Below are positions 37,055 to 55,248 of a stretch of 64,000 bases of DNA, piece by piece. The position numbers were made by a program, and so were the translations under genes. Numbering within the stretch: the stretch's first letter is position 1; each line of letters starts with the position of its first letter. Under the pieces are notes generated by a model, which searched no databases, was not told where the DNA came from, and was given only the letters and a program-made list of their open reading frames with translations. The DNA is from Winogradskyella flava (lineage in GTDB: Bacteria > Bacteroidota > Bacteroidia > Flavobacteriales > Flavobacteriaceae), in contig NZ_JACLCP010000002.1 in NCBI RefSeq assembly GCF_014243395.1, forward strand, positions 1 through 64,000, read 5' to 3'.

Positions 37055-38149
37055 ATGCTTAGCCCAAAGGTCAAGAGAAATATCAAACGCATCATTCCTT
37101 TTGGGATTATCTGGTTATGCACAAGTTTAGTGTTTTTATGGACAGAATATGCGGTCATAGGTACGCCATCTCATACGCCCGAATCTGCTATTTCAATTAG
37201 TTTCGAAATCATAGTTTTTGCCAGTATTACCACCTTTTTTATAGGGGCTCTAGTGGGGTTAATAGAATTAGTTTTTTTAAATCGGTTATTTATAAAAAAG
37301 AGCTTTAGATCAAAAATTGTCTATAAGTTTCTGTTTTATGCTTTGGTGATGTATGTCATAGTACTTATAGCCTATCTAATAGCGGCAAGTATGGAATTAG
37401 ATGTGTCCATAAGTGATAGCAAAGTGTGGGATAAATACAAGCTTTTCTTTTTTAGTATTACACATATAAGTACAGTAGTTCAGCTAGGTTTTTCATTACT
37501 ATTATCATTGCTTTATGCCGAAATAAGCGAGCATTTAGGGCAAAATATTTTGCGTAACTTTTTTACAGGGAAATATCATAAACCTATTTCTGAAGAGCGG
37601 ATATTTATGTTTACTGATATGAAATCCTCTACAACGATTGCCGAAGAATTGGGCCATGACACCTATTTTAAATTACTGCGTGATTATTATCACGATATGT
37701 CTGATGCAATTATAAAGAGTGAAGGGGAAGTTTATCAATATATTGGAGATGAGGTTGTTATTTCATGGCCATTAAACAAAACATCTAAGTCTGTGTCGTG
37801 TATTAATTGTTTTTTTAATATGAAAAGCGATCTAAATAAAAGGAAAGATTGGTATATGAAGACCTATGGTTTTTTTCCAGACTTTAAAGCGGCTTTACAT
37901 TATGGTGAAGTCACTAGTGGCGAAATTGGAGCTTTAAAGAAAGAGATATTTTTCGTTGGTGATGTATTAAACACTACCGCAAGAATCCAGGACCTTTGTA
38001 ATGCTTATCATACGGATCTATTACTATCGGAACAGCTCGCATCTTTTTTAGAATTGGATAAAACTTACGTTTTAAAACATCTAGGCACTTCTAATTTTAG
38101 AGGCAAACAAGAACGCTTAGCCTTGGTAACCCTAGAAGAGCGTGCTTAA
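37055..38149 (+). CDS. Membrane class III adenylate/guanylate cyclase
   Basis: 364 residues. Four membrane helices in the first ~170 residues (IIPFGIIWLCTSLVFLW, ITTFFIGALVGLIELVFL, FLFYALVMYVIVLIAYLIAA, ISTVVQLGFSLLLSLLY), then a class III cyclase domain. The metal-binding Asp residues are in FTDMKSST and YIGDEVV, and the transition-state Asn-Arg pair is in VLNTTARIQ, so it looks active. ATP or GTP preference cannot be decided. It may signal for the HAD partner or an unlinked cAMP-binding protein. Confidence 0.88.
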   Translation: MLSPKVKRNIKRIIPFGIIWLCTSLVFLWTEYAVIGTPSHTPESAISISFEIIVFASITTFFIGALVGLIELVFLNRLFIKKSFRSKIVYKFLFYALVMYVIVLIAYLIAASMELDVSISDSKVWDKYKLFFFSITHISTVVQLGFSLLLSLLYAEISEHLGQNILRNFFTGKYHKPISEERIFMFTDMKSSTTIAEELGHDTYFKLLRDYYHDMSDAIIKSEGEVYQYIGDEVVISWPLNKTSKSVSCINCFFNMKSDLNKRKDWYMKTYGFFPDFKAALHYGEVTSGEIGALKKEIFFVGDVLNTTARIQDLCNAYHTDLLLSEQLASFLELDKTYVLKHLGTSNFRGKQERLALVTLEERA

Positions 38150-38501: not shown

Positions 38502-41213
38502 ATGTATTTTTATTTATACCAAATAGATGAAGATGAAATAAAAAATTGGATTCTTGATTTTTTTTCAGATCATCCTGTTCTGGCCTCAATTTTAATTTCA
38601 TTTGTTATAATAGCCTATTTCGTATTTCAGAATTTGCCTAAACTAAAGGATTTTTTAGAGAGCTTAGACTTCTTTAAAAAGATATTGACAAGAAATAGCA
38701 ATGCAGATATTGTAAAGAGTAAGCTTATAGATCATTCTAATAGAATTCCAATAACCAACTCGTCTAACAGGTATATTGAAAATGAGCATAATGTAAATCG
38801 ATTACTTGAGCTTATTCGAAATGATAATAATCGCATCATTACGGTAACAGGTGAAGCAGGAATTGGAAAAACAAAATTGGTAGAATATGTCAGTACCAAC
38901 TTACTTAAAAAAGAGTATGTCAACCAAATTTACATGGATTTTGAGAATGTAAATAGTAGAGATTTTACAAAAGCTACAGATACTACAGAAGACATATTAA
39001 AAGACACTAAAACAAAGGTTGTTAATAACGCGTTGGGTGCTAAAGAAAGTATTGAAGAGTATGGACATATTGCAAAAGACTACCAAAGACCAACACTTAT
39101 TTTTATAGACAATTACGAACAAGTATTAGATAATAGCGAACTTAGTTTAAGCATTTTTAATGATATCATTAATCCTTTAGTGGATAATAATCCTCTCATC
39201 AAGGTTATTATCACAAGCCGAACAAATATAGAAGAAGCAAGTGTAAATTTTAAAGTACAACCACTATCAAATATTCCGCTAGAAGATCTTAAAGACTTTA
39301 AAGGCGACTTAACACAGCATTTCACAGCTATTGAGCTATTTTGTAAACTTTACAATCAAGATAGTGTTCATGATGATAAGGATTATAAAGATGATAAGTT
39401 TACCAAAGAACAATTTGAAAATATAGTTATGTTATGCCATAAGGTGTCTAATTTACCCTTAGGTATTCATCTTATTGCCACGTCGAGCGCACATGGAGAA
39501 ATTTCGTTTGCTGAGATTTTATCAGACTTAAAGTCTCATTTTAATAAGCAAATTCCTAATCTGTTTAGAGAGTTTAGTGATAGGCATAAATCATTATACA
39601 ATGTGTTTGATTGGACCTATGGATTATTATCAGACTCTGAGAAGGAATTCTATAAGCACCTCATGTATTTTCCAAATGGATTCTTTTTAAATAATCTTCC
39701 ACATTGGGAGGGTTTTAAAAACCATACTGAGACCAAGCAAAAGGTATTAAAACTTAATAAAGGAAGTTTTTTAAGAGACCAGAAATACCATCCGAGACTA
39801 AGAAATCGATACGAAATAATTATTCTATTTAGGGAGTTATTAGGTATTGATACTAAAAATAGCCGTGATAGCTTTTCTAAAGATTATGTACAAGCCATTC
39901 ATTTAGCCGCTTATAAAAGAGTAAAGGAAATTGATGATTTGATCCATGACAAAAACACTGACATGGCAAATGTAGATTTAATAAAGGAGGAAATAAGATT
40001 GGAGTATGAGAATATTACTTACTTTATTGAACAATCTGCTACAACTAACCTAAAATTGGCAGTCGATATGTTGGTAAGTCTTGAGAGAATTCTTAATGAG
40101 TTTGGACCTTACATACTATTGGAGGATATGTACGATCCATTACTAAATCGAGTTACTGACCCAGTGCAAAGGGCACGTTTATTAATGTCAAAAGCGAGAG
40201 TTTTAAAGAGCACAAAAAATAGAGAAGCTAGTATTCCACCTATAGAAGAAGCTATTGAGCTATTAGAACAAACCGATGTGAAATCTGAAATTTTAGGTGA
40301 AGCCTACAGAATAGGAACATATTTATCGAGCCAAATAAGTGGAAATCAACTAACAGATACCATTTTTGATAAATTCAATGATTTAGATGAATCTGATAAA
40401 GCAAAACTGGGAGAATTAAATCTAGCGTTTATTACCTTAGAGCAAGCAAAAAAATATGAAAGCTCCGGAAATATGAAATTAGCAATAAGCAGTTTTGATA
40501 GAGCCATTTCATTTATGGAAGGTTACAAGGTACAACAAGCTCAAGCTTATAATTTTGTTGGAATGACCTATTGGCGTTATGGCGAATCAAAGAAAGCAGA
40601 AAAGTACTTTCTTGAAGCCATAAAAAAGTATAGTGGAATTGGAGAAGAACGATGGATATTAGGCTTTAATACCAACTTAGGACTATTATACTGTGATGAA
40701 GGCAATCTTAATAAGAGCTTGGAATATACTCAGAAGGTATCCGAAGCACTTAAAGTCCAAGGACCTTTCGGCTGGTCCATGATAAACATGTTAGGTTTAG
40801 GTAGAGTTTATTGCCGTAAACGTAAGACTACTAGTTATTTCAATAAGTCAGAAGAATATTTATTACACAGTTATAGAAACTTAAAGGATATAAAGTATGC
40901 AGAATCTGCTATACTGGCATCGGTTGAGTTGGCTGAGCTTTATTATAAATACGATAAATATGACTTGGCTAGAGAGTATTCTGAAAAGAGTATAACGTAT
41001 GCAAAGGAAGAAGGCTACACTAATTATATGAGATATTTTAGAGCAGTTTGTCTTTTGGGGCTTATCAATGCGAAAGATAAAAAAAATGAAGAATCTTTTC
41101 AGAACTTAGAAGAGGCAGAGAATATTCTTAGCCGTATAGAGGACAATAAGTGGTTAACTTATGAACTAACTAAAGAAAGATATAACAGCTTAAAAAAAAT
41201 ACATGCAAAATGA
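38502..41213 (+). CDS. Membrane-anchored STAND (NB-ARC-like) ATPase with TPR repeats
   Basis: 903 residues. One membrane helix near residues 27-45 (LASILISFVIIAYFVFQNL). NB-ARC/STAND NTPase core: Walker A GEAGIGKT (117-124), Walker B TLIFIDN (about 198-204), the IITSRTN sensor (about 236-242) and NLPLGI (about 317-322, GLPLA-like). From about residue 550 to the end there are helical TPR-type repeats (e.g. AQAYNFVGMTYWRYGESKKA, YNTNLGLLYCDEGNLNKSLEY-like unit). STAND proteins are signal-triggered switches, several of them antiviral. The stop overlaps the next start by 4 nt (ATGA), so the two form a coupled pair. No nuclease or TIR effector is fused. Confidence 0.85.
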   Translation: MYFYLYQIDEDEIKNWILDFFSDHPVLASILISFVIIAYFVFQNLPKLKDFLESLDFFKKILTRNSNADIVKSKLIDHSNRIPITNSSNRYIENEHNVNRLLELIRNDNNRIITVTGEAGIGKTKLVEYVSTNLLKKEYVNQIYMDFENVNSRDFTKATDTTEDILKDTKTKVVNNALGAKESIEEYGHIAKDYQRPTLIFIDNYEQVLDNSELSLSIFNDIINPLVDNNPLIKVIITSRTNIEEASVNFKVQPLSNIPLEDLKDFKGDLTQHFTAIELFCKLYNQDSVHDDKDYKDDKFTKEQFENIVMLCHKVSNLPLGIHLIATSSAHGEISFAEILSDLKSHFNKQIPNLFREFSDRHKSLYNVFDWTYGLLSDSEKEFYKHLMYFPNGFFLNNLPHWEGFKNHTETKQKVLKLNKGSFLRDQKYHPRLRNRYEIIILFRELLGIDTKNSRDSFSKDYVQAIHLAAYKRVKEIDDLIHDKNTDMANVDLIKEEIRLEYENITYFIEQSATTNLKLAVDMLVSLERILNEFGPYILLEDMYDPLLNRVTDPVQRARLLMSKARVLKSTKNREASIPPIEEAIELLEQTDVKSEILGEAYRIGTYLSSQISGNQLTDTIFDKFNDLDESDKAKLGELNLAFITLEQAKKYESSGNMKLAISSFDRAISFMEGYKVQQAQAYNFVGMTYWRYGESKKAEKYFLEAIKKYSGIGEERWILGFNTNLGLLYCDEGNLNKSLEYTQKVSEALKVQGPFGWSMINMLGLGRVYCRKRKTTSYFNKSEEYLLHSYRNLKDIKYAESAILASVELAELYYKYDKYDLAREYSEKSITYAKEEGYTNYMRYFRAVCLLGLINAKDKKNEESFQNLEEAENILSRIEDNKWLTYELTKERYNSLKKIHAK

Positions 41214-41821
41214 ATGACTTAATCCCATATCCTTGGAAGGATTTTTTAAAAGGCAACAACGGTTTTAATTTGTTTGGTTATGGTAGCTTAATAAATCAAT
41301 TTTCTTCCAAGGAAGCAATTAGTAATTCAACACAGCTAAAACCTGTCATGGGATTTGGGATAAAACGTGTATTAAATTATGATCCAGATGAGAACGTTCG
41401 CAGTAGACCTATTTATCAAGATCCAGAGCGAGGTGATGAATATTTTGGTGTGTTCAACATAGAATATTCGGGCAATGGACTGGATAGAGCAAATGGAGTC
41501 ATGAGAACAGTCGAGCCAAATGATTTCGAAAATTTTGTAAAAAGAGAAGTGGGTTATTCATTAGTTAAAATAAAGTGTCAAGATTTTTATAATCCTAGCT
41601 CACCAATTATAGACGCCTATACACTTGTAGCACCAAAAGTATTTAATGGTAGGCAACTAGTAAATAATGAATTATTACCAAATGTACCTTATTATAAAAT
41701 ATGTAGAGAGGGTGCCGCAGAAGTCTCAGATGCGTTTTTACAAGTCTGGTTAGATACGTCTTTTTTAGGCGACGGAAGAGGTGTAAGGACATGGGAACAG
41801 GAGGAAGGTCTTGACTTTTAA
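41210..41821 (+). CDS. Gamma-glutamylcyclotransferase-like (GGCT/ChaC fold) enzyme
   Basis: 203 residues. FGYGSLIN (YGSL at 24-27) is the nucleotide-independent substrate loop of the GGCT/AIG2/ChaC fold. KREVGYSLVKI places the catalytic Glu at residue 113. The GVFNIEYSG strand and NGVMRTVEPNDFENF stretch also fit. Such enzymes release 5-oxoproline from gamma-glutamyl compounds including glutathione. Here it overlaps a STAND switch, so it could be the effector or a partner that reads or destroys a metabolite; this is inference. Confidence 0.75.
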   Translation: MNDLIPYPWKDFLKGNNGFNLFGYGSLINQFSSKEAISNSTQLKPVMGFGIKRVLNYDPDENVRSRPIYQDPERGDEYFGVFNIEYSGNGLDRANGVMRTVEPNDFENFVKREVGYSLVKIKCQDFYNPSSPIIDAYTLVAPKVFNGRQLVNNELLPNVPYYKICREGAAEVSDAFLQVWLDTSFLGDGRGVRTWEQEEGLDF

Positions 41822-42070: not shown

Positions 42071-44476
42071 ATGAAATTTGTTTCCAAACCTGCAAATAAC
42101 CTTGGTCATTGGCTGAGCTTGATATTAAAAGAAGTGTCAAATCGTGCCATGTCGGTGATTTTTGTGCTTCTAATATTCATTCTGCTTTGGTTTGTACCTC
42201 AAATAAATGATCTTATTCTTGTATTAAACCAAAGCTGTAATCATTGGATTACGACACCGGTTTTCTTTACAACCTTGGTGGTCTTTGCATTTTTTATAAG
42301 TGCGCTTGGTGACTATTTTTCCCCTCCAGGACTTAGGCAAACCAACAATGGTATATTCCCAGACTATCCAACTAAAAAAATGTATTATTTCAGGGTGCCA
42401 AAAGATGCCATGGAAGTTTTTATCGATGCTAAGATTAGGGGAGTGTATCCTCAAAATGCAACACTTCAAGAAAGTAGCGGACAATATATAAGACGTGTGT
42501 TTCCAAAATTGCTCGGAAGCTTATTGATTTTGGTAGCCACCTTTGCTGTCAATCATACATTTACTGAAGTTTATGGCAAAAGCATAGCTGGTGGTAATAC
42601 CATTTTTTATGTGTTTTTGGTGGCATTCCTGTTGTTGTTGCACCAAAATATTGCGCTATGGATTACGGAGCAATTGGCAAAATTCCCGAAGCTTATCACA
42701 TACGGACCTATAGTATTAGCGTCTGTCTGTATCGTGGTTATTGTAATATTGGGCTTTTTTAACAGAGGCGGTACAAGGGAAGATTCTGTCCGTTTGTTTT
42801 ATGCCTTACTATCATTAACTATGCTATTCTTGATATTGTCCTTATCCTACAATACCTATGTGCTATGGTTGAAACAAAAAATAGGAGGTCGATTAATTGT
42901 CCTTTGTATAATGTTTATCTTATTGGGATATCTTGCCTTGTTTTTTGACCCTACACTATTTGAAGCTTATTTCACGCCTATTTCGATTATCATGATTTGT
43001 TTAATAGGCATTTACACGGCCCTTAATGTGGTTAAGATTTTTGGTAAGCTATTGGATTTACAATTATTGGGCATTACGACTATAATAGCCATTGCATTGG
43101 CGACCTATAACGCTGGAAAAAAGGACTTTGATCATTATGAAGCGAGTCATACAAGCGAGATGAAACATCAGCCCTCAGACCGTCTCAGCATAAAGGCATA
43201 TAGTGAGGCATGGGTTGCGGATCGACTAGAGTTAATAAAGCAGCAAAAGGCAGGTGAGAAGTTCCCCATCATTTTAGTGTCTGCCGAAGGTGGTGGATCT
43301 AGGGCGGGCTTATGGTCGTTTTTGGTACAAAGTTATTTGTTTGATCATGACCCAGATTATTTCGAAAAGTACCTTTTCGCCATGACGGGTGCCTCTGGTG
43401 GTGGCGTAGGCAATAATATGTTCTATGTGCAGGCCAATGAGTTGTTATCGAACCCCAATGCCAAACCCTTAAAGTTCGATAATTGGTCGCCTAAATATAG
43501 TTGCGAAAATGACACTTTAGGTTTTAAATATAGAGCCAGCCGTATCTATAACAACGATTACTTATCGAGTTCCGTCGCTAGCCTTTTGGGTAGGGATCTA
43601 CTGAAAAGTATCACCAATATTTGTATTGATTATGAAGATAGAGGTCGCATGCTAGAGCAGCAATGGTCTAGTGCATTTAATGAGGTCTTTGACCGAAATG
43701 ACGACCCTTTAAATAAGGCCTATTTGGATATGATGCCACAAAAAGGGGTTCATGATTATATCCGGCCATTGCTTATTACAAACACAACGGAACTAAAATC
43801 AGGAGAGCGCATGGTCATTAGCCCAGTCGCTATTGCAGAAGACAAGAATAACATGGCCGCTTTTAAGGATATGCTGGCGCTATATCCACATAAGGATAAA
43901 ATGATAAGACGGTCTGCGGCGATGTCTATGAATGCACGTTTTCCTTATGTGAGTCCAGCGGCGCGTATCACAGGTTTAGGGCAGTATGGTGATGCTGGCT
44001 ATTATAACAATATAGGCGGTGAGGTTACGGTAAGACTAAAAAATGCATTAGTAAAAGCCTTGACCTTGGCTATCGAAAACGATAGTACCATAGCCGATAA
44101 ATATATAATAAAGCACCTTGTGATCTCCAATTTTGAAAAGCACACGGCGCTGAGCTACAGCAGTCAGCTTTTGGCCCCTTTAAGCTTGGTGGCCAGTGCG
44201 ACCTTTGCACATCCCAAACAAAATGAAAATAGCTTTTCAAATCTTATAGATATAGAATCCAAACGCGTTAAAATTCCTATAGAAGCCCCAACGGGTATTA
44301 GCAAATGGGTACGCTCGTTTACAAGTGATACCGAAACCGATTCCATAGAACCTGTAATTCCATTAGGACGCTATATGTCTAGGGCAGCCGTGCGAGCCTT
44401 AGAGTATCGACTAGAAGATAAGGCCGTTGTAGACTGTCTTAATGAGGTCTTAGAAATGCGCAACCCAAATCCATAA
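42071..44476 (+). CDS. Membrane patatin-like phospholipase
   Basis: 801 residues. About eight membrane helices fill residues 25-345. The C-terminal patatin domain has the oxyanion loop EGGGSRAG (407-413), the nucleophile Ser442 in TGASGGG and the catalytic Asp641 in YGDAGY, so the Ser-Asp dyad is intact. Patatins hydrolyse membrane lipids; defence systems such as CBASS use them as effectors, but no cyclase or sensor is adjacent here. The ATG shares its upstream region with 46619. The next gene follows after 39 nt. Confidence 0.87.
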   Translation: MKFVSKPANNLGHWLSLILKEVSNRAMSVIFVLLIFILLWFVPQINDLILVLNQSCNHWITTPVFFTTLVVFAFFISALGDYFSPPGLRQTNNGIFPDYPTKKMYYFRVPKDAMEVFIDAKIRGVYPQNATLQESSGQYIRRVFPKLLGSLLILVATFAVNHTFTEVYGKSIAGGNTIFYVFLVAFLLLLHQNIALWITEQLAKFPKLITYGPIVLASVCIVVIVILGFFNRGGTREDSVRLFYALLSLTMLFLILSLSYNTYVLWLKQKIGGRLIVLCIMFILLGYLALFFDPTLFEAYFTPISIIMICLIGIYTALNVVKIFGKLLDLQLLGITTIIAIALATYNAGKKDFDHYEASHTSEMKHQPSDRLSIKAYSEAWVADRLELIKQQKAGEKFPIILVSAEGGGSRAGLWSFLVQSYLFDHDPDYFEKYLFAMTGASGGGVGNNMFYVQANELLSNPNAKPLKFDNWSPKYSCENDTLGFKYRASRIYNNDYLSSSVASLLGRDLLKSITNICIDYEDRGRMLEQQWSSAFNEVFDRNDDPLNKAYLDMMPQKGVHDYIRPLLITNTTELKSGERMVISPVAIAEDKNNMAAFKDMLALYPHKDKMIRRSAAMSMNARFPYVSPAARITGLGQYGDAGYYNNIGGEVTVRLKNALVKALTLAIENDSTIADKYIIKHLVISNFEKHTALSYSSQLLAPLSLVASATFAHPKQNENSFSNLIDIESKRVKIPIEAPTGISKWVRSFTSDTETDSIEPVIPLGRYMSRAAVRALEYRLEDKAVVDCLNEVLEMRNPNP

Positions 44477-44515
44477 TCATAACAGCCCTAACCAATTATT
44501 TAAAACATACCAATC

Positions 44516-46240
44516 ATGAAAACCATAAGATTAAGCCTTTTAGTAATAGCAGTGTCATTAGTCAGTTTTGCCCAAGACGGACCAAGGCTTCAGGTCACCG
44601 GAAATGGGGCCTTTATCCAAAGGGGTACTATAGATACCGAGCTGTTAACAGCCCTCATTCAACAAAAGCAAGAAGAAGTTAAGCAACGTGTTTTTAGAAA
44701 TACGATTATACGCCAGTTTAATCACAGTTCTTATACCAAACGTCTAAACAACTTTACCACCTACAGCTACTTATATAGCCTTATGGATGTTTTAACCAGT
44801 GGTAAGAACAAGACGGTAATGACCAAGCAAATTGTAGAACGCTCCGCAGAGTTCGCGGCGGTTTATGGCATTATACTATTGGCGAATAGTAGTTTAAATG
44901 AATCCGCGAAGGTCCAATTTACACCAGGCGATCGTGGTGCCATGATACCCATGGAAAGCGTCAAAGATTTTAATATTAGAATAGATATGTGTCTTGATAT
45001 TTTACTCAAAAACGAGAGCACGTTATTAGAGAAGTTTAAGTTTAAGGAAACCTTGAGCAATAATAAATACTATCAATCTTGGTATATCAATGATAATACC
45101 TATTTAAAGGCCTTAGAAAGTAATGATGGTGCAGATGCCGACTTCTGGATGAATGAGCGTCGTATTCTTAAGGATAAGATCGATAAATTCATAGAATATT
45201 ATGAAGCCATTGAGAATGTAGCAGAAATCATAGGAAACAATTATGCCCTAAAAACAGAGCTAAAAACCATCAAAGACGGCTTTTTTGAAGGCTCGCAAGA
45301 GGATTTTAGCGATGTCCTAGCAGAGATTGAAGAGCGCTTAGCGACCACAATACCAGACGATTTAAAGCAGGACTTATTGAATATTAAGAGTTACCTCGAT
45401 GACAAGACCGAAGTATTTGGGCAGCTGTATAACTTTTATAAAGATTTGGAGAAATCTAGGTTTAAGGATTTTACCATGACCAAGGCGCAATATAACGCCA
45501 TGAAGTACATACTGCTTGAGTTTATTGATTTGGCTAGAAACCAGTATGTGAATAATGATGTCATCTCTAGCATTTTAGAATTTATGCTAGAATATACATC
45601 GATAGAATACACCACAGATAACGGCATATCCATGTTAGAAGAACAAGCTGAGGCGCAACCGCGGAATGCAAAAGGTTATTTGTACTTGGATGTCCCCTCA
45701 TTAATCACGGCAATAGATGCCAATTTAGGTTCTGTAAAGCGCAAGGGTATTTTAAACTACGTCACACCATTTTTTAGTATTGGTACAAATTATGCCTCTT
45801 TTGATAATGACAATGCCCTAATGGTAGATGGCGAAGAAATTAACGATTTGTATTTTGCCTCGGAGAAGTTAGGCTTAAAATGGAAGGTCTGGAACTGGAA
45901 ATACACACATAGTTTTGAAGCCGGAGAAACCTTTAATTACTATGGCTATAAAAAGCGCAAGTGGAATAGACCACAGCAAGAACCTTTGCTAAGCGACCTT
46001 TATGTGATGGCTTATGGCTCTGGGCTATTATACAATTTGGTAGACTTAAAATCCCAAGATGGCTTTGATTATGCCGTTTTTGGCGCAGGTGTAGGGATTA
46101 CTTTTTTTAATGGACTCTCGCTTAATGTAAGCTATGCGAGTCCCTTAGTAGATAAACAACTTGATAACGGTTTCTTTAATGTAGGGTTTGATATCCCTAT
46201 CATAGATTATATTTCTGCCTTAAGCAAAAAAGGGAGTTAA
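44516..46240 (+). CDS. Exported protein of unknown function
   Basis: 574 residues. Signal peptide MKTIRLSLLVIAVSLVSFAQ. The middle ~350 residues are mainly helical and charged; the last ~130 alternate beta strands (FDYAVFGAGVGITFFNG, LDNGFFNVGFDIPII) like an outer-membrane or surface barrel segment. No family recognised. It is probably cotranscribed with the patatin. Confidence 0.7.
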   Translation: MKTIRLSLLVIAVSLVSFAQDGPRLQVTGNGAFIQRGTIDTELLTALIQQKQEEVKQRVFRNTIIRQFNHSSYTKRLNNFTTYSYLYSLMDVLTSGKNKTVMTKQIVERSAEFAAVYGIILLANSSLNESAKVQFTPGDRGAMIPMESVKDFNIRIDMCLDILLKNESTLLEKFKFKETLSNNKYYQSWYINDNTYLKALESNDGADADFWMNERRILKDKIDKFIEYYEAIENVAEIIGNNYALKTELKTIKDGFFEGSQEDFSDVLAEIEERLATTIPDDLKQDLLNIKSYLDDKTEVFGQLYNFYKDLEKSRFKDFTMTKAQYNAMKYILLEFIDLARNQYVNNDVISSILEFMLEYTSIEYTTDNGISMLEEQAEAQPRNAKGYLYLDVPSLITAIDANLGSVKRKGILNYVTPFFSIGTNYASFDNDNALMVDGEEINDLYFASEKLGLKWKVWNWKYTHSFEAGETFNYYGYKKRKWNRPQQEPLLSDLYVMAYGSGLLYNLVDLKSQDGFDYAVFGAGVGITFFNGLSLNVSYASPLVDKQLDNGFFNVGFDIPIIDYISALSKKGS

Positions 46241-46481
46241 TGCTTGGTGCGGCAGAAGACGTATAAGAGTTTATTGGTGAAATGGTATAGTTATAAAACT
46301 TGTGTATCACTTCGATTAATTCGTCGTAGACGAATTGTACTTCGACTGCGCTCAGCAGAACTATCGAGAAGCTTTTATCCAATATAGACCAATTTTAACA
46401 TTTCATAGATTTTCTAGTCCTTTTATCTAATTAACGACCAGAGTACTATAAAAATTTATAATTTAAGTGTATCCCTTTTGA
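46241..46481. repeat. Intergenic region with a REP-like element
   Basis: No gene. The element at 46308-46372 consists of AATTCGTCGTAGACGAATT (a palindrome) followed by TACTTCGACTGCGCTCAGCA and ACTATCGAGAAGC. It is nearly identical to 56446-56511 in the same orientation. Confidence 0.75.
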
Positions 46482-46616
46482 GTGCCATATCCTTAATGGT
46501 ACATAATTATATAGTTCGTTGTTGACTGCACGAAATGCAATTTACCCTTCACTGGGTATATTTTGCTTATAGAGCTTGTGCCTAATTTTGAGTATTAATC
46601 GACTAAACGCTATGGA
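46482..46616 (+). promoter_or_regulatory. Duplicated promoter/inverted-repeat block, copy 2
   Basis: Same layout as copy 1, 4548 bp away without gaps: GTGCCAT-N7-ATGGTAC (46482-46502), TGCA-N5-TGCA (46527-46539), TACCC-N6-GGGTA (46543-46558), then TTTG and TAATTTTG (46583-46590). It lies directly before the gene at 46619 and even keeps the same bases around the ATG. Confidence 0.75.
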
Positions 46617-46618
46617 TT

Positions 46619-47728
46619 ATGAAATCAAGAAATGTTCATTCCACCAAAAGAAATGCTTTTAAGGAATTAAAAAAAATTCTAACGAAAAAGATTTTTTGTA
46701 CCATTTATTTATTCTCTTCATTTTTAATAGGTCAAGATGTTTTATCAGTGGCTAAAGTAAATACACCTGAACAAGTCAGCACAACCAGTAAAGAGAAAAT
46801 ACATATAGATTTCGTTGGAACAGGAAATTTACAAGGATCTTTATCAAAAGGTGAGGCTATTGATGGTAGTGCTGGAATAGGAGTTATTTATGAAAGATTT
46901 AGAGGCAATACTAAACAGTATAAGGGTAGATTTTGGAATATGAGAGAGCGGTTTATTGATACGGCTGATATAGACAATGATAATGATACTACAGAGTTAA
47001 AAACCAGACGATGGAAAGAATGGAGAGCTTCACATGAAAGAAGTATCATCGGAGTAAAAAGCTACGAAATTGAGGCTACTATAAATGTTGCTGCAACAAC
47101 TGATACCATATCTGCAGAATTTAATGAGAATATGTTAATAAGAAATCAAAGAGATTTCGGATTTTTTATTCTAAATCCTTTTACAAATGATCAGTCTCTA
47201 TTTATAAATACAAATGTATATCTAAATCCTGATGGCGACCATTGGATGAACAATGTAGCCAAGATTATTAGTGGTTTTAATGGTCGTGTTATAGCATCCA
47301 ACAGTGTATGGAATGTGGGTGAAAATCAAAATATAAACCTTGGTGTTTTAGCTCTACGCTGTGGTATTTTTCATGAATTTTTACCAGATAATAAGATTAG
47401 AGATGAAGATGGTAAGACAAAATACAGTGTCTTTTTAGGCTTGAATATGGGTTATAGAGGAATTTTTGGTGATATCATTTCTGAGAATAATAGAGATTTA
47501 AGAATAGCCACCTTAGGGACGGATAGAACGGATTTTTCTGGACTTGAATTTAATTTTGGATTTAGACTTGAAAACATCCGCGCAGAATTTCAAATGCCTT
47601 TTTTATTTGGTAGCGATAGAAATTCTATACTTGGTCTAACAAATACCCAATTTTTGTTTACTATACGTTTTGTTGGCGGATTTGGTTTAAAGTTAAACAC
47701 AAAAAATCCAAAGAAGGAAGAAGAGTAA
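46619..47728 (+). CDS. Putative outer-membrane/exported protein
   Basis: 369 residues. A basic N-terminus is followed by a hydrophobic segment (IFCTIYLFSSFLIGQ) that can serve as signal peptide. The rest has many beta strands (IHIDFVGTGNLQGSL, SVFLGLNMGYRGIFG, FNFGFRLENIRAEF) and ends FLFTIRFVGGFGLKL, like a membrane barrel. No family recognised. The start is supported by a promoter 22 nt upstream of the expected leader. Confidence 0.6.
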   Translation: MKSRNVHSTKRNAFKELKKILTKKIFCTIYLFSSFLIGQDVLSVAKVNTPEQVSTTSKEKIHIDFVGTGNLQGSLSKGEAIDGSAGIGVIYERFRGNTKQYKGRFWNMRERFIDTADIDNDNDTTELKTRRWKEWRASHERSIIGVKSYEIEATINVAATTDTISAEFNENMLIRNQRDFGFFILNPFTNDQSLFINTNVYLNPDGDHWMNNVAKIISGFNGRVIASNSVWNVGENQNINLGVLALRCGIFHEFLPDNKIRDEDGKTKYSVFLGLNMGYRGIFGDIISENNRDLRIATLGTDRTDFSGLEFNFGFRLENIRAEFQMPFLFGSDRNSILGLTNTQFLFTIRFVGGFGLKLNTKNPKKEEE

Positions 47729-48094: not shown

Positions 48095-51000
48095 ATGACA
48101 ATAAAAGAATACTTAGAAATAGTAAGTAAAAGACTTCAATCTGGAATATCAAGAGAACATTCGTATAGAGGAGATTTAGAAACACTAATCCGAGAATTAG
48201 TAAAAGGAATTGAAATAACAAACGAACCTGCAAACGTAACTGATTGTGGAAACCCAGATTATGTAATCACAAAAGGAAAAATTCCTGTTGGTTACATTGA
48301 GGCGAAAGATATTGGAAAAGACCTAAACAGTAATTCTTACAAAGAACAATTTGGACGTTACAAAAAAGCTCTTGAAAATCTAATAATTACAGATTACATC
48401 TGGTTTCAATTCTTTCAAAACGGAGAATTAGTTCACGAAATCAAAATTGGAGAAATTGAAAACAATTCAGTCAAACCAATTCCTGAAAACTTCTCAAAAT
48501 TTGAGAACTTAATAAAAGACTTTTCCACTCACATTGGCCAAACCATAAAATCGTCAAAAAAATTGGCGGAAATGATGGCTGGTAAAGCTCGTTTATTACA
48601 AGACATTCTAGAACGAGCAATTACATCTGATCAAGAAACACAAGAAAACACTTCCTTAAAAGGACAATACGACACTTTCAAACAGATATTAATTCACGAT
48701 TTAAAACCTAAAGATTTTGCAGACATTTATGCTCAAACTTTGGCTTATGGAATGTTTGCAGCTCGTTTGCACGATCCAACTTTAGACGATTTCAGCCGAC
48801 AAGAAGCAGCAGAATTAATACCGAAATCAAATCCTTTTTTACGTAAACTATTTGGCTACATTGCTGGACCAGATATTGATGAAAGAATTGTAACTGTAGT
48901 TGACAACCTTGCAGAAGTTTTTAGAGCTACAAACGTTGAACAACTTTTAAAGAATTTTGGAAAGGCTACTCAAATGCACGACCCAATAATTCACTTCTAC
49001 GAAACCTTTTTGGCAGAATACGACCCAAAATTACGTAAAGCAAGAGGTGTTTGGTACACACCAGAACCAGTTGTAAACTTTATAGTTCGTGCAGTTGACG
49101 ATATTTTAAAAAACGAATTTGATTTACCACAAGGTATAGCAGACACAAGTAAAACCAAAATAAAATTAGACACACAAACACCTGATAAACGTTCTGCAAC
49201 AGGCTATAAACAAATAGAAAAAGAAGTACATAAAGTACAAATACTTGACCCAGCAACAGGAACTGGAACATTTTTAGCAGAAGTTGTAAAGTTCATTTAC
49301 AATAAAAACTTTAAGGCAATGAAAGGTGCTTGGAGTGGATATGTAGAAGAACATTTAATACCAAGATTAAACGGTTTTGAGTTATTAATGGCATCCTACT
49401 CGATGGCACATCTAAAATTAGATATGTTATTAACCGAAACAGGTTATAAATCAACTAAAAATGAACGTTTAAATATTTACTTAACTAACTCTTTAGAAGA
49501 ACATCATAAAGATACTGGAACTTTATTTTCTAATTGGTTAAGTAGTGAAGCTAATGAAGCTAATCATATTAAGCGTGACACACCTGTAATGTGTGTTGTT
49601 GGAAATCCACCATATGCATCAAGTAGCACAAATAAAGGGGCTTGGATTGAAAACTTAATCTCAGATTATAAAAAAAATCTAAAAGAAAAATCATACAATT
49701 CTCTTTCAGATGATTATGTGAAATTTATAAGGTATGGACAATATTATATTCAGAAAAATAATGAAGGAGTTTTAGCATATATCTCAAATAACAGTTTTAT
49801 TGATGGTTTAATCCATCGACAAATGAGGAGAAATTTATTAGAAACGTTTGATAGTATTTATATTCTAGACCTACATGGTGATTCTAAAAAAAAGGAAGTA
49901 TGTAAAGATGGTTCACCTGACCAAAATGTATTTGATATTATGCAAGGGGTTTCGATTAATATTTTTATTAAAACTGGAGTTAAACGAAAAAATGAACTAG
50001 GTAAAGTTTATCATTTTGACTTGCAAGGGAAGAGAAATGTTAAATATGATTTTCTAAATAAAAATTCTCTCAAAAATATTAAATGGTCTTTGTTGGAAAC
50101 TAAGGAGCCTAATTACTTCTTCATAAACAAGGATTTTTCTGGTCAAAATAAATATAATAAAGGATTTAAAATTGATGAGATTTTTTTAAAGTATAATAAT
50201 GGTATAGAAACTGGGAAAGACCTATTTTTCTATGGTAAATCAAAGGAGGAGCTAAAAGATAAATTAGAGAATGAATTCTCTAACAAACCTGAGACTATTA
50301 ACAATTATAAAATCACTAATACATCAAGTTTTCAATTTCAAGATAAATTTAATTCATCTACTTTCGATTACAAGAAAATTAGACCTGTAAGTTATCGACC
50401 ATTTGATATTATTTCATCCTATTATGATGAAAAACTACAAAGAAGACCTGCATTTACTACAATGAAACATATGTTTTCTGAAAATATTGGTCTTTTAGTA
50501 CCAAGACAGTTTTCAGGTGATTTCAAACACATTTTTATATCTAAATACCCTACTGATTGCAACTTAACTGGTACGGCAAAAAAGTTTGGTAGCTCACCTT
50601 TGATTCCTCTTTATTTATATGAGGAAAACAATGGACAACAAAGTATTGCAAATGAACTAGAAAGAACCCCAAACTTAAACAAAGAAATCGTAAATAAAAT
50701 TGCAGAAAAGTTAGGCTTAAAATTTACCAACGAAAAAGAAGAAACTAAAGACACTTTTGCACCAATTGACATTTTAGATTACATCTATGCTGTTTTACAC
50801 TCACCAACTTACAGAGAAAAATACAAAGAGTTTTTAAAAATAGATTTTCCAAGAGTTCCATATCCAAAAGACGAGAAGACGTTTTGGAATCTAGTTAAAC
50901 TAGGAAAAGAAGTACGTGAAATTCATTTGTTAGAAAACAACAAAGTTGAAGATTACATTACAAGTTATGAAATGGCAGAAGATGCAGAAAACGATCATAA

Positions 51001-51280
51001 CTTAATTACCACAAAAATTGTAAAGAAAGATTGGGAAATAATTGACAACGAAAAACAACTTGGTAGAATTTGGATAAACGAATGCAAATATTTCGACAAT
51101 GTTCCAGTAACTGCTTGGGAGTTTTATATTGGTGGATATCAACCAGCACAAAAATGGTTAAAAGACAGAAAAGAAAGAGAATTAAAGTTTGAAGATATTT
51201 TACATTATCAGAAAATCATAGTTGCTCTCAATGAAACAGATAGAATAATGAAAGAAATAGACAAAATTGAAATTGAATAG
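48095..51280 (+). CDS. Single-chain type IIG/ISP-like restriction-modification enzyme
   Basis: 1061 residues. N-terminal nuclease of the PD-(D/E)XK kind: Asp in NPDYVITK and IEAKD after VGY. A helical segment follows (KKLAEMMAGKARLLQ). Then an N6-adenine methyltransferase with ARGVWYTPEPVV, DPATGTGTF (SAM-binding) and catalytic VGNPPY. The C-terminal ~400 residues probably recognise the target. One protein would thus both cut and methylate. It is the first gene of a six-gene codirectional run. Confidence 0.88.
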   Translation: MTIKEYLEIVSKRLQSGISREHSYRGDLETLIRELVKGIEITNEPANVTDCGNPDYVITKGKIPVGYIEAKDIGKDLNSNSYKEQFGRYKKALENLIITDYIWFQFFQNGELVHEIKIGEIENNSVKPIPENFSKFENLIKDFSTHIGQTIKSSKKLAEMMAGKARLLQDILERAITSDQETQENTSLKGQYDTFKQILIHDLKPKDFADIYAQTLAYGMFAARLHDPTLDDFSRQEAAELIPKSNPFLRKLFGYIAGPDIDERIVTVVDNLAEVFRATNVEQLLKNFGKATQMHDPIIHFYETFLAEYDPKLRKARGVWYTPEPVVNFIVRAVDDILKNEFDLPQGIADTSKTKIKLDTQTPDKRSATGYKQIEKEVHKVQILDPATGTGTFLAEVVKFIYNKNFKAMKGAWSGYVEEHLIPRLNGFELLMASYSMAHLKLDMLLTETGYKSTKNERLNIYLTNSLEEHHKDTGTLFSNWLSSEANEANHIKRDTPVMCVVGNPPYASSSTNKGAWIENLISDYKKNLKEKSYNSLSDDYVKFIRYGQYYIQKNNEGVLAYISNNSFIDGLIHRQMRRNLLETFDSIYILDLHGDSKKKEVCKDGSPDQNVFDIMQGVSINIFIKTGVKRKNELGKVYHFDLQGKRNVKYDFLNKNSLKNIKWSLLETKEPNYFFINKDFSGQNKYNKGFKIDEIFLKYNNGIETGKDLFFYGKSKEELKDKLENEFSNKPETINNYKITNTSSFQFQDKFNSSTFDYKKIRPVSYRPFDIISSYYDEKLQRRPAFTTMKHMFSENIGLLVPRQFSGDFKHIFISKYPTDCNLTGTAKKFGSSPLIPLYLYEENNGQQSIANELERTPNLNKEIVNKIAEKLGLKFTNEKEETKDTFAPIDILDYIYAVLHSPTYREKYKEFLKIDFPRVPYPKDEKTFWNLVKLGKEVREIHLLENNKVEDYITSYEMAEDAENDHNLITTKIVKKDWEIIDNEKQLGRIWINECKYFDNVPVTAWEFYIGGYQPAQKWLKDRKERELKFEDILHYQKIIVALNETDRIMKEIDKIEIE

Positions 51281-51287
51281 ATTATAG

Positions 51288-52187
51288 ATGAGTAAATTTT
51301 TAACAGGAAACGACTTAGAAAGTAAACTCACAGATATTATTTGGAATGCCAAAAAGTATGTGGTTATAGTATCACCTTTTATAAAGCTAGACGAACACAC
51401 AAAAAGTGTCCTAGACAAGATTAAGGATACACCAAAGATTGCTCTATATATTATTTTTGGTAAAAATGAAGATTCTACATATAACAGCTTTAAAGAAGAA
51501 GATGTTACTTATTTTAAGTCTTTTAAAAATATCGTAATTCTATATAACAAAAATCTTCATGCAAAGCATTATGCTAATGAAAGTGAGGGACTAATAACGT
51601 CTTTGAACTTATATGGTTATTCAATGCTACACAATATTGAGTATGGTGTTTATTTTTCAAAAACACCGCTTAATCCAATAGATAGACTTTACGAGGAAAC
51701 CTATGAGTATACACACCGATTAGTTTATCAATTAAGTGATGTTGTTTTTCTGAAAAAGCCACAGTTCTCTAAGTCATTATTCGGTTTAAAGAAAGAAACC
51801 CTAGGTGCAAGAGTGATTTTTGACGTTACCGAAGAATTTTTTAATTCATCGCGCAATTATGAAAAGAAGAGCTTTGATGATTTTGATGTTGAAACTGAGA
51901 CTATAATACAAAAGAAGTATGCGGTTAAACCCGAAAGAAGTATAGCGGTAAATAGCAATTCAGCCTATAAAAAGAATAGAATTAATGAGGTAAAGAGTAC
52001 AGTGAAAATAGGTTATTGTATAAGAACAAGAGTAGAGATACCTTATAATCCAGAACAGCCTATGTGCTTAGATGCTTGGAAAGTATGGAATCAGTATAGA
52101 GACCATGATTTTCCTGAGAAATATTGTCATAAAACTGGGAAAGCGTCTTATGGTAAAACTAGTATGGCGAATCCTATTTTAAAATGA
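51288..52187 (+). CDS. PLD-like domain protein with Cys-rich tail
   Basis: 299 residues. A phospholipase D-like half-site: VVIVSPFIKLD, then LHAKHYANE (HxK) and LITSLNL (SxN). The C-terminus has GYCIRTR and KYCHKTGK, a likely metal-binding tail. Such proteins occur as nucleases or accessory factors near restriction systems. It starts 7 nt after the restriction gene. A DISARM assignment is not supported because the other DISARM genes are missing. Confidence 0.75.
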   Translation: MSKFLTGNDLESKLTDIIWNAKKYVVIVSPFIKLDEHTKSVLDKIKDTPKIALYIIFGKNEDSTYNSFKEEDVTYFKSFKNIVILYNKNLHAKHYANESEGLITSLNLYGYSMLHNIEYGVYFSKTPLNPIDRLYEETYEYTHRLVYQLSDVVFLKKPQFSKSLFGLKKETLGARVIFDVTEEFFNSSRNYEKKSFDDFDVETETIIQKKYAVKPERSIAVNSNSAYKKNRINEVKSTVKIGYCIRTRVEIPYNPEQPMCLDAWKVWNQYRDHDFPEKYCHKTGKASYGKTSMANPILK

Positions 52188-52194
52188 AGTTATA

Positions 52195-52389
52195 ATGATA
52201 ATATTAGATAGGACTTATAAGAAAATTGAATACAGTAGCTTGACTTTAGAGCAAAAAGAAAACCAAAAACTCTCGGCCTTACGAGATTGGTTGTTGCCTA
52301 TGCCAATGAATGGGCAGGTTACGGTTGGTGAGGTCAAACAAGAGTTGGATATGGTTGCGGAGGAGAGTGCTAAATATGGTGAGGTATGA
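52195..52389 (+). pseudogene. Orphan C-terminal tail of a type I restriction S subunit
   Basis: 64 residues. LRDWLLPMPMNGQVTVG matches the extreme C-terminus of HsdS proteins I know from Bacteroidota (LRDWLLPMLMNGQV). The target-recognition domains are missing, and no hsdR or hsdM is nearby. The frame is still intact, starts 7 nt after the PLD gene and overlaps the ATPase start by 4 nt (ATGA). It is either a remnant of a replaced type I system or retained only for translational coupling. Confidence 0.7.
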
Positions 52390-54257
52390 GGTTAGCGGCG
52401 ATTTACATACCAGAAGGAGTTCTTAAACATATTTTCGGGAATGATCATAAAGGGCAAACTTTAAATTTAGGAGGTAAATATTTTTATAAGATTGAAGAGC
52501 CAAGAGATAATTATTATGTTATCAAAAGTCGAGAAGAAAATCCGCTGTATATAAAAGACTTTTGGAGTGAAAAAATAGAATCTATTTCTTCAATTGTAGG
52601 AAAGAATGGTGCAGGAAAGTCCAGTTTATTAAATGCATTTAGAGACCGTTCTTTCTGCCAATATATAGTTGAAGACACTAATGGTGAAAACCCAGAGATT
52701 TGGGAGGATACAATTGATCATTTTGATTTAATTTACTACACCCCCTTTTTAAATATTCACAACGCTGATTACGAGCATAATAATTTCTACGATGTTTCAA
52801 AGTATTCTACAATGTTGGATGATACGGGATATGAAAATTTAGAGCTTAGTTCACTTTTAGAAATTCATAAATCTGAAAATATAAAAAGGTGGATAAAATT
52901 TAGAAAATTAGAGAGTATCGAGCAATATTTGGAGAATATAGGCTTACCAATTTTCAATAAGATTCAAATTAAAATGAATCACATATCAGTGACGAATAAT
53001 GATACATCCTATAATTTTCGTCCATTTTTTGAAAGTTTTAAAAAAATTAAAGACAATGAAATAGGAAAGAAGTATGAAGAGGCTAGGAAAGAGAAAGGGG
53101 AGCTTGAGTCGCCAATTGAAAGAAGGAATTATTTAAACAAACTAAGACTAAAGCTTTATATCATAGAATGTATTATCGAGAAAGTTCATAAAATACTTGA
53201 GAGTAGTGGAAACAAATATTTAAAAGAAGGGTATATAACTTCAAATTTTAATGAAGGAAGTGAAGAGTTTATAAAAATTGGAACCTTAAAAGAATCTTTT
53301 TTTTGGTTCTTAGATAATGCATACGTGCAACTCACCAAGGAGTCTCAAAAAATTAAACTACCATCCGAGGAGGTAAAATTATTAATAGAACTGTTAATAG
53401 AAGATTTGCCTATTGATGAGGAAATTGAAGATTGGTCAGAGTATTATGTAGATATAGAAAGAGCACCAAAAATTATTAATGCATATGAAGCATTCATAAA
53501 AGCATTTCAAAAAGACTTTACATATGATAGAAGAACTCCATTGATTTTTAGACCAGATGTAAATTTAAGCTCTGGCGAGAAAGTCATGTATGATTTGTTT
53601 TCTTCATTAAACGAAAATCAGTATAGACTTTTAAATAATCTTCAGAACACGCATCATTTATTTAATAAAAGTAAAAAATCTTGTAATAACTGTATTATTC
53701 TTTTAGACGAACCCGAAATGGGTTTTCATCCACAATGGAAGAAAAATTTTATAAAGTCAATTACTTCGATTTTCCCATTAATATTTAAAGGAAAACAAGT
53801 TCAAATAATTTTCACAACCCACGATCCCTTGACTTTATCAGATATACCAAATTCTTGTATTACATTTTTAGATAAGACTGATGATGGAAAAACAATCATT
53901 AATGAAAATAAAATTCGGCAAACATTTGGCGCAAATATTCATGATTTATTAGCACATAGTTTTTTTCTCGAGAATGGATTTATGGGAGAGTTTGCTGAAG
54001 AATTAATAACAGACTTAATTAACTATTTAACTTACAATAACGACGAAGATATCTCAGAAGAAAATACTAAACCAATAAGAGATTGGGATAATAAAAAAGC
54101 AGAAAAGGTTATTCAAATTATAGATGAACCACTGATAAAAGAGCGAGTGCAATCACTTTTTAATAAAAAAGTCCTTTATAATGATAAAGAATTACTTCGT
54201 CTAAAGATTAAGCAATTGAATAATGAACTAAATAGATTAGAAGATGAGAAAGATTAA
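52386..54257 (+). CDS. Septu-like AAA ATPase (PtuA-like)
   Basis: 623 residues of the ABC/SMC-type AAA ATPase group. Walker A is SIVGKNGAGKSS, the signature is LSSGEKVMYDLF, Walker B is IILLDEPEMGF, and the His switch is in FTTHDP. Between Walker A and the signature there is a long helical insert. It overlaps the following HNH gene by 14 nt. An ATPase of this kind with an HNH partner is the layout of Septu (PtuA-PtuB). Assignment to Septu itself is likely but not proven. Confidence 0.8.
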   Translation: MRLAAIYIPEGVLKHIFGNDHKGQTLNLGGKYFYKIEEPRDNYYVIKSREENPLYIKDFWSEKIESISSIVGKNGAGKSSLLNAFRDRSFCQYIVEDTNGENPEIWEDTIDHFDLIYYTPFLNIHNADYEHNNFYDVSKYSTMLDDTGYENLELSSLLEIHKSENIKRWIKFRKLESIEQYLENIGLPIFNKIQIKMNHISVTNNDTSYNFRPFFESFKKIKDNEIGKKYEEARKEKGELESPIERRNYLNKLRLKLYIIECIIEKVHKILESSGNKYLKEGYITSNFNEGSEEFIKIGTLKESFFWFLDNAYVQLTKESQKIKLPSEEVKLLIELLIEDLPIDEEIEDWSEYYVDIERAPKIINAYEAFIKAFQKDFTYDRRTPLIFRPDVNLSSGEKVMYDLFSSLNENQYRLLNNLQNTHHLFNKSKKSCNNCIILLDEPEMGFHPQWKKNFIKSITSIFPLIFKGKQVQIIFTTHDPLTLSDIPNSCITFLDKTDDGKTIINENKIRQTFGANIHDLLAHSFFLENGFMGEFAEELITDLINYLTYNNDEDISEENTKPIRDWDNKKAEKVIQIIDEPLIKERVQSLFNKKVLYNDKELLRLKIKQLNNELNRLEDEKD

Positions 54258-55248
54258 AATCACCAAAGATCTTCGTGATTTTGTTAAGGCTTTTAATGTT
54301 GATCTTTTTACAAATACAAGAACGAAAGGTTTTAAAAGCCCTCAAGATAAATTAAATGATCTTCTTCTTAAGATAAAACCTCGTAAACATAAAGAATTTA
54401 GACTTTATGTTGAAAAAATAATAAACAAGTACGATGATATTTTAAATGCGGATCCTACTAAAATGGAAATCTTAATTTCTGAATTTGATTCTATTGTGCA
54501 TAGTTCACAATTAGGCAGAAAAATAGCGAGTAAGAAATATAGCTTCCATGAAAATGTAGTTGAAGCAATGCGTTATGAAGATTTAAGAGATAAAGAATTT
54601 CCTGAGTATCTAATAAATTCTGATTTACGTACATGTGTTTATTGTAACGCTCAATCTGCTATTACAATTGAACCTGTTTACTATAACAAAGAGAAAAGAA
54701 AGAAGAGAAAAAAAATTTTGTCCAAATTGCAACTAGATCATTTCTATCCAAAGTCTAAATACCCTTTTTTAGCTACAAGTTTTTTTAATTTATATCCGAC
54801 GTGTGCTAATTGTAATTTAGCCAAAGGTAAAGAAGATGCAAAATTTGAGTTATATACTTTGGGCAATGATCTTGACCCATTTCATTTTTGGATTGATGAC
54901 GAATCTATTATAGATTATTGGATCAGCCTTGATATAAAAAGTCTAAAAATTCATTTAGATTCTTTGGATGGTGATATTGAGTTACTTCAAAATCATAATG
55001 AGTTATTCCAAATTCAAAAGATATACGATGCCCAAAAAGATATAGGTGAAGAATTAGTTTGGAAATTTAAAGCTAATCCAAGTACTTACAGAAGTTTACT
55101 TAGTAAGTCTTTTAATAAAATTTTCCCTGATTCCTCAGTCATTGATAGGATGATTATTGGCAATTACAGCAAGCCAGAAGAAACATTTAAAAGGACTATG
55201 GCAAAATATACTCAAGATATTGCAAGGCAACTTAAATTAGTAAAATAA
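54244..55248 (+). CDS. HNH nuclease (PtuB-like)
   Basis: 334 residues. The HNH core has CVYC, then LQLDHFYPKSKYP, FNLYPTCANCNLAKGK: two CxxC pairs, the His in DHF and the Asn in NLYP. This matches the HNH/TIGR02646 type found with PtuA and with retron-linked ATPases. The N-terminal ~125 residues are helical. It overlaps the ATPase by 14 nt and the next start by 1 nt. Confidence 0.83.
   Translation: MRKIKITKDLRDFVKAFNVDLFTNTRTKGFKSPQDKLNDLLLKIKPRKHKEFRLYVEKIINKYDDILNADPTKMEILISEFDSIVHSSQLGRKIASKKYSFHENVVEAMRYEDLRDKEFPEYLINSDLRTCVYCNAQSAITIEPVYYNKEKRKKRKKILSKLQLDHFYPKSKYPFLATSFFNLYPTCANCNLAKGKEDAKFELYTLGNDLDPFHFWIDDESIIDYWISLDIKSLKIHLDSLDGDIELLQNHNELFQIQKIYDAQKDIGEELVWKFKANPSTYRSLLSKSFNKIFPDSSVIDRMIIGNYSKPEETFKRTMAKYTQDIARQLKLVK

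What the first reader, a model, noticed from the sequence alone, without database searches (positions are those of the whole stretch)
38502..41821. STAND-TPR ATPase coupled to a gamma-glutamylcyclotransferase-like enzyme: candidate new two-gene system
A membrane-anchored STAND/NB-ARC-TPR protein overlaps by 4 nt a GGCT-fold protein with YGSL and the catalytic Glu retained. STAND proteins are conformational switches in defence and stress, and GGCT enzymes act on glutathione-type gamma-glutamyl compounds. I know no described system with this pair. The STAND protein carries no fused effector, so the GGCT may be the effector (metabolite or redox attack) or a partner. The neighbourhood is accessory and next to a defence operon.
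Basis: partly seen in the sequence, partly recalled or inferred. Interest (0 to 1): 0.75.

Follow-up and report, generated by a model that had tools for sequence, protein, structure and literature searches.

The report
NLR-like switch with cyclotransferase-like partner
In some marine bacteria a probably membrane-bound, immune-receptor-like protein is locked together, as neighbouring genes or as one fused protein, with an enzyme-like domain that may destroy glutathione-type compounds, which suggests an undescribed way for bacteria to shut down infected cells.

The parts
38502..41213 (+). STAND(NB-ARC-like)-TPR protein with N-terminal hydrophobic helix, 903 aa
   Evidence: the model of the fused homologue P0024 resembles 6mfv (STAND with TPR sensor), Apaf-1 and plant NRC2 NB-ARC
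38571..38627 (+). N-terminal hydrophobic stretch (residues 24-42), likely membrane anchor
   Evidence: Kyte-Doolittle 2.24; N-terminal maxima of 1.82-2.98 in 11 of 11 sequences examined, window included. Weak in P0026 (1.82) and L006 (1.90); elsewhere in the chains maxima reach 1.97
38850..38873 (+). Walker A, GEAGIGKT (residues 117-124)
39102..39122 (+). Walker B region, FIDNYEQ (residues 201-207)
40125..41210 (+). TPR array, approximate extent (residues about 542-903); Pfam TPR hits at 652-710
   Evidence: helical repeats in the model of homologue P0024; TPR-superhelix matches
41210..41821 (+). GGCT-fold protein, 203 aa; its start codon overlaps the stop codon of the STAND gene (ATGA)
41279..41290 (+). 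YGSL motif (residues 24-27)
41546..41548 (+). Glu113, predicted catalytic glutamate
   Evidence: in 64 of 64 aligned rows; a weak profile alignment (domain i-Evalue 7.2) puts it on a Glu of the AIG2-like protein 2jqv

Best explanation
The two genes are one functional unit: a membrane-anchored NLR-like (STAND) switch whose output module is a GGCT-fold enzyme, made as a separate partner here and as the C-terminal domain of the same chain in relatives. Proposed mechanism: the TPR array binds a phage- or damage-derived ligand; the ATPase exchanges nucleotide and oligomerises at the inner membrane; clustering activates or positions GGCT; GGCT cyclises the gamma-glutamyl group of a small thiol or gamma-glutamyl amine to 5-oxoproline, draining that pool and stopping the infected cell (abortive infection). 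Shown: co-location, fusion, conserved predicted catalytic residues, predicted fold, conserved Walker motifs, accessory distribution. Inferred: membrane anchoring (hydropathy only), defence role, ligand, oligomerisation, enzymatic activity, substrate, toxicity, and that GGCT is output rather than input.
For: Coupling: STAND-TPR directly upstream of GGCT in the window, L002, L003 and L004; one intact 1093-aa chain in Kordia periserrulae (L005); a TPR-GGCT fusion with a broken STAND part in L006. Two more fused proteins, P0024 and P0026, 72% and 70% identical to the window's GGCT. Scanning 397 family genomes added no STAND of this kind without GGCT: the STAND at E<=1e-30 is in three genomes, the GGCT strongly in those three plus a fourth with the fused gene. 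Apart from the window these are the same genes as L002, L003 and L005, so they are not extra cases. The Kordia STAND finds only itself and the window's gene (E 7e-23, 23% identity) at E<=1e-20. STAND and GGCT identities correlate at r=0.90 over 7 pairs. GGCT is the most conserved part (60% mean identity against 38-39% for ATPase, ARC/WHD and TPR and 19% for the N-terminus), as expected for an enzyme acting on a fixed metabolite. Defence context: inside hsdM-hsdS-[pair]-hsdR in L002, beside a HEC-05/GmrSD_N gene in L005, within 8.2 kb of a SIR2_2 gene and STAND-like genes in L006, 6.3 kb from a type IIG R-M gene in the window. Precedent for a GGCT-family enzyme as growth-stopping effector: RipAY, which depletes GSH in yeast, needs an activator, and is inactive as E216Q (PMC4959522, abstract and passages seen).
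Against: No activity or phage protection has been measured. L003 and L004 show no recognisable defence genes (by eye; one gene of each scanned). In characterised antiviral STAND proteins the effector is usually N-terminal and a highly variable sensor, TPRs for example, C-terminal (PMC10907252, section 12 read): a C-terminal GGCT occupies the usual sensor position, and the TPR segments here (39%) do not diverge faster than the ATPase (38%), so there is no sign of an arms-race sensor. A glutathione target is uncertain: the genome has a GshB-type synthetase but no hit to two glutamate-cysteine ligase families, the search for a third had no working control, and it carries BshC of bacillithiol synthesis. 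Distant GGCT relatives lie apart from STAND or look secreted.
Confidence: 0.47

Rival explanations
1. Reverse polarity: the N-terminal hydrophobic helix is the output (oligomerisation inserts or opens a helix bundle in the membrane, like a resistosome), and TPR plus GGCT form the sensor, GGCT binding or processing a gamma-glutamyl metabolite or phage-modified compound.
For: Domain order matches the usual layout of antiviral STAND proteins, effector first and sensor last (PMC10907252 section 12). An N-terminal hydrophobic stretch is found in 11 of 11 sequences examined.
Against: The N-terminus is the least conserved part (19% mean identity) and the GGCT the most conserved (60%), with the predicted catalytic residues intact. 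In G1005 a GGCT relative overlaps a different membrane protein with a weak effector-associated-domain match, as expected if GGCT is a portable output.
Confidence: 0.21
2. Not defence: a MalT-like metabolic or stress switch in which the STAND-TPR part senses a metabolite or peptide and controls a gamma-glutamyl enzyme for thiol or amine homeostasis.
Against: Rare and patchy: only the window's own genome in 60 relatives and in 395 of the phylum, 4 strong hits in 397 of the family; four of six loci near defence-type genes, one inside a restriction operon.
Confidence: 0.22
3. GGCT is an immunity or regulatory partner that restrains the STAND protein (antitoxin-like) rather than an effector.
For: Stop-start overlap of the two genes.
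Against: Single-chain fusions and strictly conserved predicted catalytic residues are not expected of a mere inhibitor.
Confidence: 0.06
4. Two unrelated neighbours that happen to overlap.
For: Bacterial genes often overlap by 4 nt (general knowledge); distant GGCTs are not linked to STAND.
Against: 6 of 6 close loci with visible context coupled, 3 intact fusions and 1 broken one.
Confidence: 0.02

Closest known systems
Avs / bacterial NACHT (NLR-related) antiphage proteins
   Same: STAND-family ATPase with a helical-repeat C-terminal part; accessory; often near defence-type genes
   Different: No recognised N-terminal enzymatic effector; the candidate output is a C-terminal or separate GGCT; best Pfam matches are ATPase_2 and AAA_22, with NACHT far below cut-off (17.0 against 26.7 bits)
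STAND protein with TPR sensor, PDB 6mfv
   Same: STAND plus TPR; top Foldseek match to the fused homologue's model (E 9.9e-12)
GGCT/ChaC/GGACT gamma-glutamyl cyclotransferases (human GGCT 2rbh, ChaC2 6ky1, yeast 5hwi)
   Same: Predicted fold, YGSL and Glu
   Different: Below Pfam detection; extra N-terminal YPW segment and a conserved LLPNxPYY...C region; tied to a STAND switch
RipAY (Ralstonia ChaC-like effector; PMC4959522 abstract and passages seen)
   Same: A GGCT-family enzyme that stops growth when expressed in yeast and needs an activating partner
   Different: A secreted effector acting in plants and activated by thioredoxin; not STAND-linked
Effector-associated-domain (EAD) conflict systems (PMC7159879, passages seen)
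   Same: NTPase cores coupled to effectors by fusion or adaptor; a GGCT relative in G1005 overlaps a protein with a weak EAD11 match
   Different: AIG2, GGCT, glutamyl and EAD11 do not occur in that paper's main text; no EAD was seen in the window pair

Membership tests
STAND / NB-ARC ATPases | P-loop NTPase with Walker A/B, sensor and GxP-type motif, followed by helical regions | tested here: met
   ATPase_2 and AAA_22 over cut-off, NB-ARC 21.3 bits against 23.5; motifs; the homologue P0024's model matches Apaf-1, NRC2 and 6mfv
STAND / NB-ARC ATPases | Ligand-triggered oligomerisation | not testable with these tools
   none
GGCT superfamily | GGCT-like fold | tested here: met
GGCT superfamily | YGSL loop and catalytic Glu | tested here: met
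   position of the Glu supported by the fold match and a weak profile alignment, not by a residue-level superposition
GGCT superfamily | Recognised by a curated sequence profile (customary, not strictly defining) | tested here: not met
   no Pfam family for the window protein; of 64 A2 members 1 reaches GGACT, at E 0.096; the G1005 relative reaches AIG2_2 at E 0.05
GGCT superfamily | Cyclotransferase activity releasing 5-oxoproline | not testable with these tools
   none
Avs / bacterial NACHT defence proteins | N-terminal effector domain fused to STAND | tested here: not met
   no Pfam domain before the ATPase, only a hydrophobic stretch
Avs / bacterial NACHT defence proteins | Match to known antiphage models | tested here: not met
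   PADLOC gives only weak TPR and mad8 hits for the window protein, and TPR, mad8 and BrxF for fused homologues
Antiphage defence system | Neighbourhood of defence-type genes | tested here: met
   4 of 6 loci; genes to scan were picked by eye and no background rate was computed
Antiphage defence system | Protection against phage | not testable with these tools
   none

The most novel reading that the evidence does not exclude
A new kind of immune output in bacteria: an NLR-like switch that kills or stalls infected cells by cyclising gamma-glutamyl metabolites (glutathione-type thiol or gamma-glutamyl-amine depletion), with the GGCT module portable between a STAND core (two-gene or fused) and other membrane-anchored conflict proteins such as the one in G1005.
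Probability: 0.33. Interest if true: 0.8.

Novelty: new variant of a known kind. Interest (0 to 1): 0.63.

Why it matters
Known bacterial NLR-like outputs are, to my knowledge (recalled), mainly nucleases, NADases, proteases and membrane disruptors. A STAND switch wired to a gamma-glutamyl cyclotransferase would add attack on a thiol or amine pool to that list, and gives an unusually clean experimental handle: two genes, or one fused chain, each part with an obvious single-residue knockout.

Tried and rejected
Chance neighbourhood: rejected by recurrence and fusions.

Phage- or plasmid-borne cargo: no GGCT relative confirmed in viral contigs (two short peptide patterns, 19 stretches tested), none in plasmids or phages at E 1e-5.

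Clean insertion site: the upstream cyclase was found in 14 of 38 genomes, own included, but in the three neighbourhoods fetched (of the 13 others) none of the other 22 window genes tested matched, so no empty site could be defined.

Upstream cyclase (37055) and downstream genes (42071-47728) as part of the system: not recognised beside the pair in the gene lists, by eye only; no search was made for them there.

Glutathione as the certain substrate: dropped because the host thiol evidence is mixed.

Fast-diverging TPR as a sign of a phage sensor: dropped, the TPR segments are as conserved as the ATPase.

Promoter and terminator scan: 24 promoter-like sites against 18.4 +/- 4.2 in shuffles, 2 terminator-like against 1.3 +/- 1.2, so no operon boundary is claimed.

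Papers: nine searches. Four returned no paper; one search returned 7 and one search returned 3; some searches returned 203, 610 and 202, of which 20, 15 and 15 were listed. Nothing listed describes the pair by title or opening abstract. I opened four: PMC7159879 (passages), PMC8195603 (term counts only), PMC4959522 (abstract and passages), PMC10907252 (passages and section 12).

Full report

Does the pair stay together? A scan of genome contigs with two peptide patterns from the GGCT alignment returned 57 confirmed loci. The five closest (79, 67, 59, 40 and 35% identity: Tamlana, Pseudozobellia, an uncultured Flavobacteriaceae genome, Kordia, a Flammeovirgaceae MAG) all carry a related STAND-TPR: adjacent and overlapping by 1 nt (L002), 4 nt (L003) or up to 23 nt (L004), in one 1093-aa chain in Kordia, and as a TPR-GGCT fusion with the STAND part broken across frames in the MAG. 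With the window that is 6 of 6. The other 52 loci, at most 33% identical, show no STAND by tblastn with three STAND queries at E 1e-4; some of their flanks are short. Protein searches add two fusions, P0024 and P0026. Of the eight close STAND homologues, two (P0022, P0023) are adjacent pairs, two are fusions, two (P0027, P0028) share contig lengths with GGCT hits (P0008, P0013), which suggests but does not prove adjacency, and two (P0025, P0029) are unresolved. One search scored only 8000 candidates, so its list is incomplete.

Reverse test. In 397 family genomes the GGCT alignment hits 7: four strongly (G000, G070, G406, G237) and three weakly (E 9e-9 to 5e-7). The STAND alignment at E<=1e-30 hits exactly G000, G070 and G406. 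The stretches returned from G406, G070 and G237 lie letter for letter inside L002, L003 and L005, so these are the same cases as above; what the scan adds is that no STAND of this clade appeared without GGCT in 397. The Kordia STAND at E<=1e-20 hits only G237 and the window's gene at 23% identity; G070 and G406 did not reach that threshold. Only two candidates per genome were scored in the two STAND scans, so relatives may be missed. Other scans: the window's own genome alone in 60 relatives and in 395 of the phylum, own plus one in 295 of the class. The system is rare and patchy.

A counter-example. The other class hit, G1005 (L090), has a GGCT relative (31% identity) with no STAND in the 17 kb fetched. 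It overlaps by 17 nt a 321-aa protein with an N-terminal hydrophobic segment (by eye) and a weak, below-cut-off match to Effector-associated domain 11 (PF19964, E 0.011, 16.2 bits against 26). PADLOC finds nothing in it. If real, this points to GGCT as a portable output module; it is only a lead. The 49 relatives P0037-P0085 at 28-37% identity could not be placed in context; P0052, P0058 and P0059 carry lipobox-like N-termini and look secreted and free-standing (by eye). Some of these are as close to the window's GGCT as the Flammeovirgaceae one, so the 6 of 6 is limited to loci whose context I could see.

Defence context. L002: hsdM, hsdS, the pair, then hsdR with 8 bases between. L005: HEC-05/GmrSD_N gene 0.4 kb downstream. 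L006: SIR2_2 gene about 8.1 kb away and two STAND-like genes nearer; PADLOC matched only the SIR2 gene of the three. Window: type IIG R-M at 48095, a weak DrmC-like gene, PDC-M62A/B and PDC-S14 candidates. L003 and L004: none recognised by eye, with one gene of each scanned. This is 4 of 6; I chose the genes to scan because they looked like defence genes, and no background expectation was computed.

Direction of signalling. Mean pairwise identity over nine paired sequences (36 pairs) is 19% for the N-terminus, 38-39% for ATPase, ARC/WHD and TPR segments, and 60% for GGCT (two of the nine pairings rest on contig length; P0025, P0029 and L006 were not used). A highly conserved GGCT fits an enzyme on a fixed metabolite. 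Against a phage-sensing TPR, the TPR segments diverge no faster than the ATPase. The rival, GGCT in the C-terminal sensor position of a usual antiviral STAND layout (PMC10907252 section 12), cannot be excluded. STAND and GGCT identities correlate over 7 certain pairs (r 0.90; of 5040 pairings only the true one reaches it), which shows joint inheritance but not mechanism.

Substrate. The host genome has BshC, a GshB-type synthetase above curated cut-offs for two NCBIfam models but below TIGR01380's, no hit to GCS2 or Glu_cys_ligase, both with working controls, and an uninformative search for PF08886. Glutathione is possible, not established.

Literature. Nine searches listed no description of the pair; most listed papers were not opened. 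In PMC7159879 'AIG2', 'GGCT' and 'glutamyl' do not occur, nor 'EAD11'; in PMC8195603 'AIG2', 'GGCT', 'glutamyl' and 'cyclotransferase' do not occur. RipAY (PMC4959522; abstract and passages) is the nearest precedent I found for a GGCT-family enzyme used to stop growth.

Change of odds on checking. Because the family-scan genomes turned out to be the same genes as L002, L003 and L005 and the TPR divergence does not support a sensor role, I lowered the best explanation from 0.50 to 0.47, the novel case from 0.35 to 0.33 and interest from 0.64 to 0.63, and raised the reverse-polarity rival from 0.20 to 0.21 and the non-defence rival from 0.20 to 0.22.

Noticed in passing
L090:6256-7813 (-): GGCT relative overlapping a protein (P0092) with a hydrophobic N-terminus and a weak EAD11 match; possible second GGCT-based conflict system.
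   Followed up: partly
window 52386-56084: PADLOC candidate systems PDC-M62A/B (PtuA/PtuB-like ATPase and HNH-type protein) followed by PDC-S14.
   Followed up: no
window 48095-52187: Type IIG restriction-modification gene with Type_ISP_C domain, followed by a weak DrmC-like ORF.
   Followed up: no
window 37055-38149: Class III nucleotide cyclase with hydrophobic N-terminal half, and a moderate match to Pycsar cyclase models (PycC, 38.8 bits).
   Followed up: partly
window 42071-44476: Large, hydrophobic predicted protein without Pfam or NCBIfam hit; its sequence reads patatin-like (GASGGG), from recall.
   Followed up: no
L063:243-2139: A distant GGCT (E 9e-9) with a TPR-like ORF (by eye) about 200 nt upstream in another genome of the family.
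   Followed up: no
G000 (L066, L067): Host has BshC and a GshB-type synthetase but no hit to two tested glutamate-cysteine ligase families; its thiol chemistry is unclear.
   Followed up: partly
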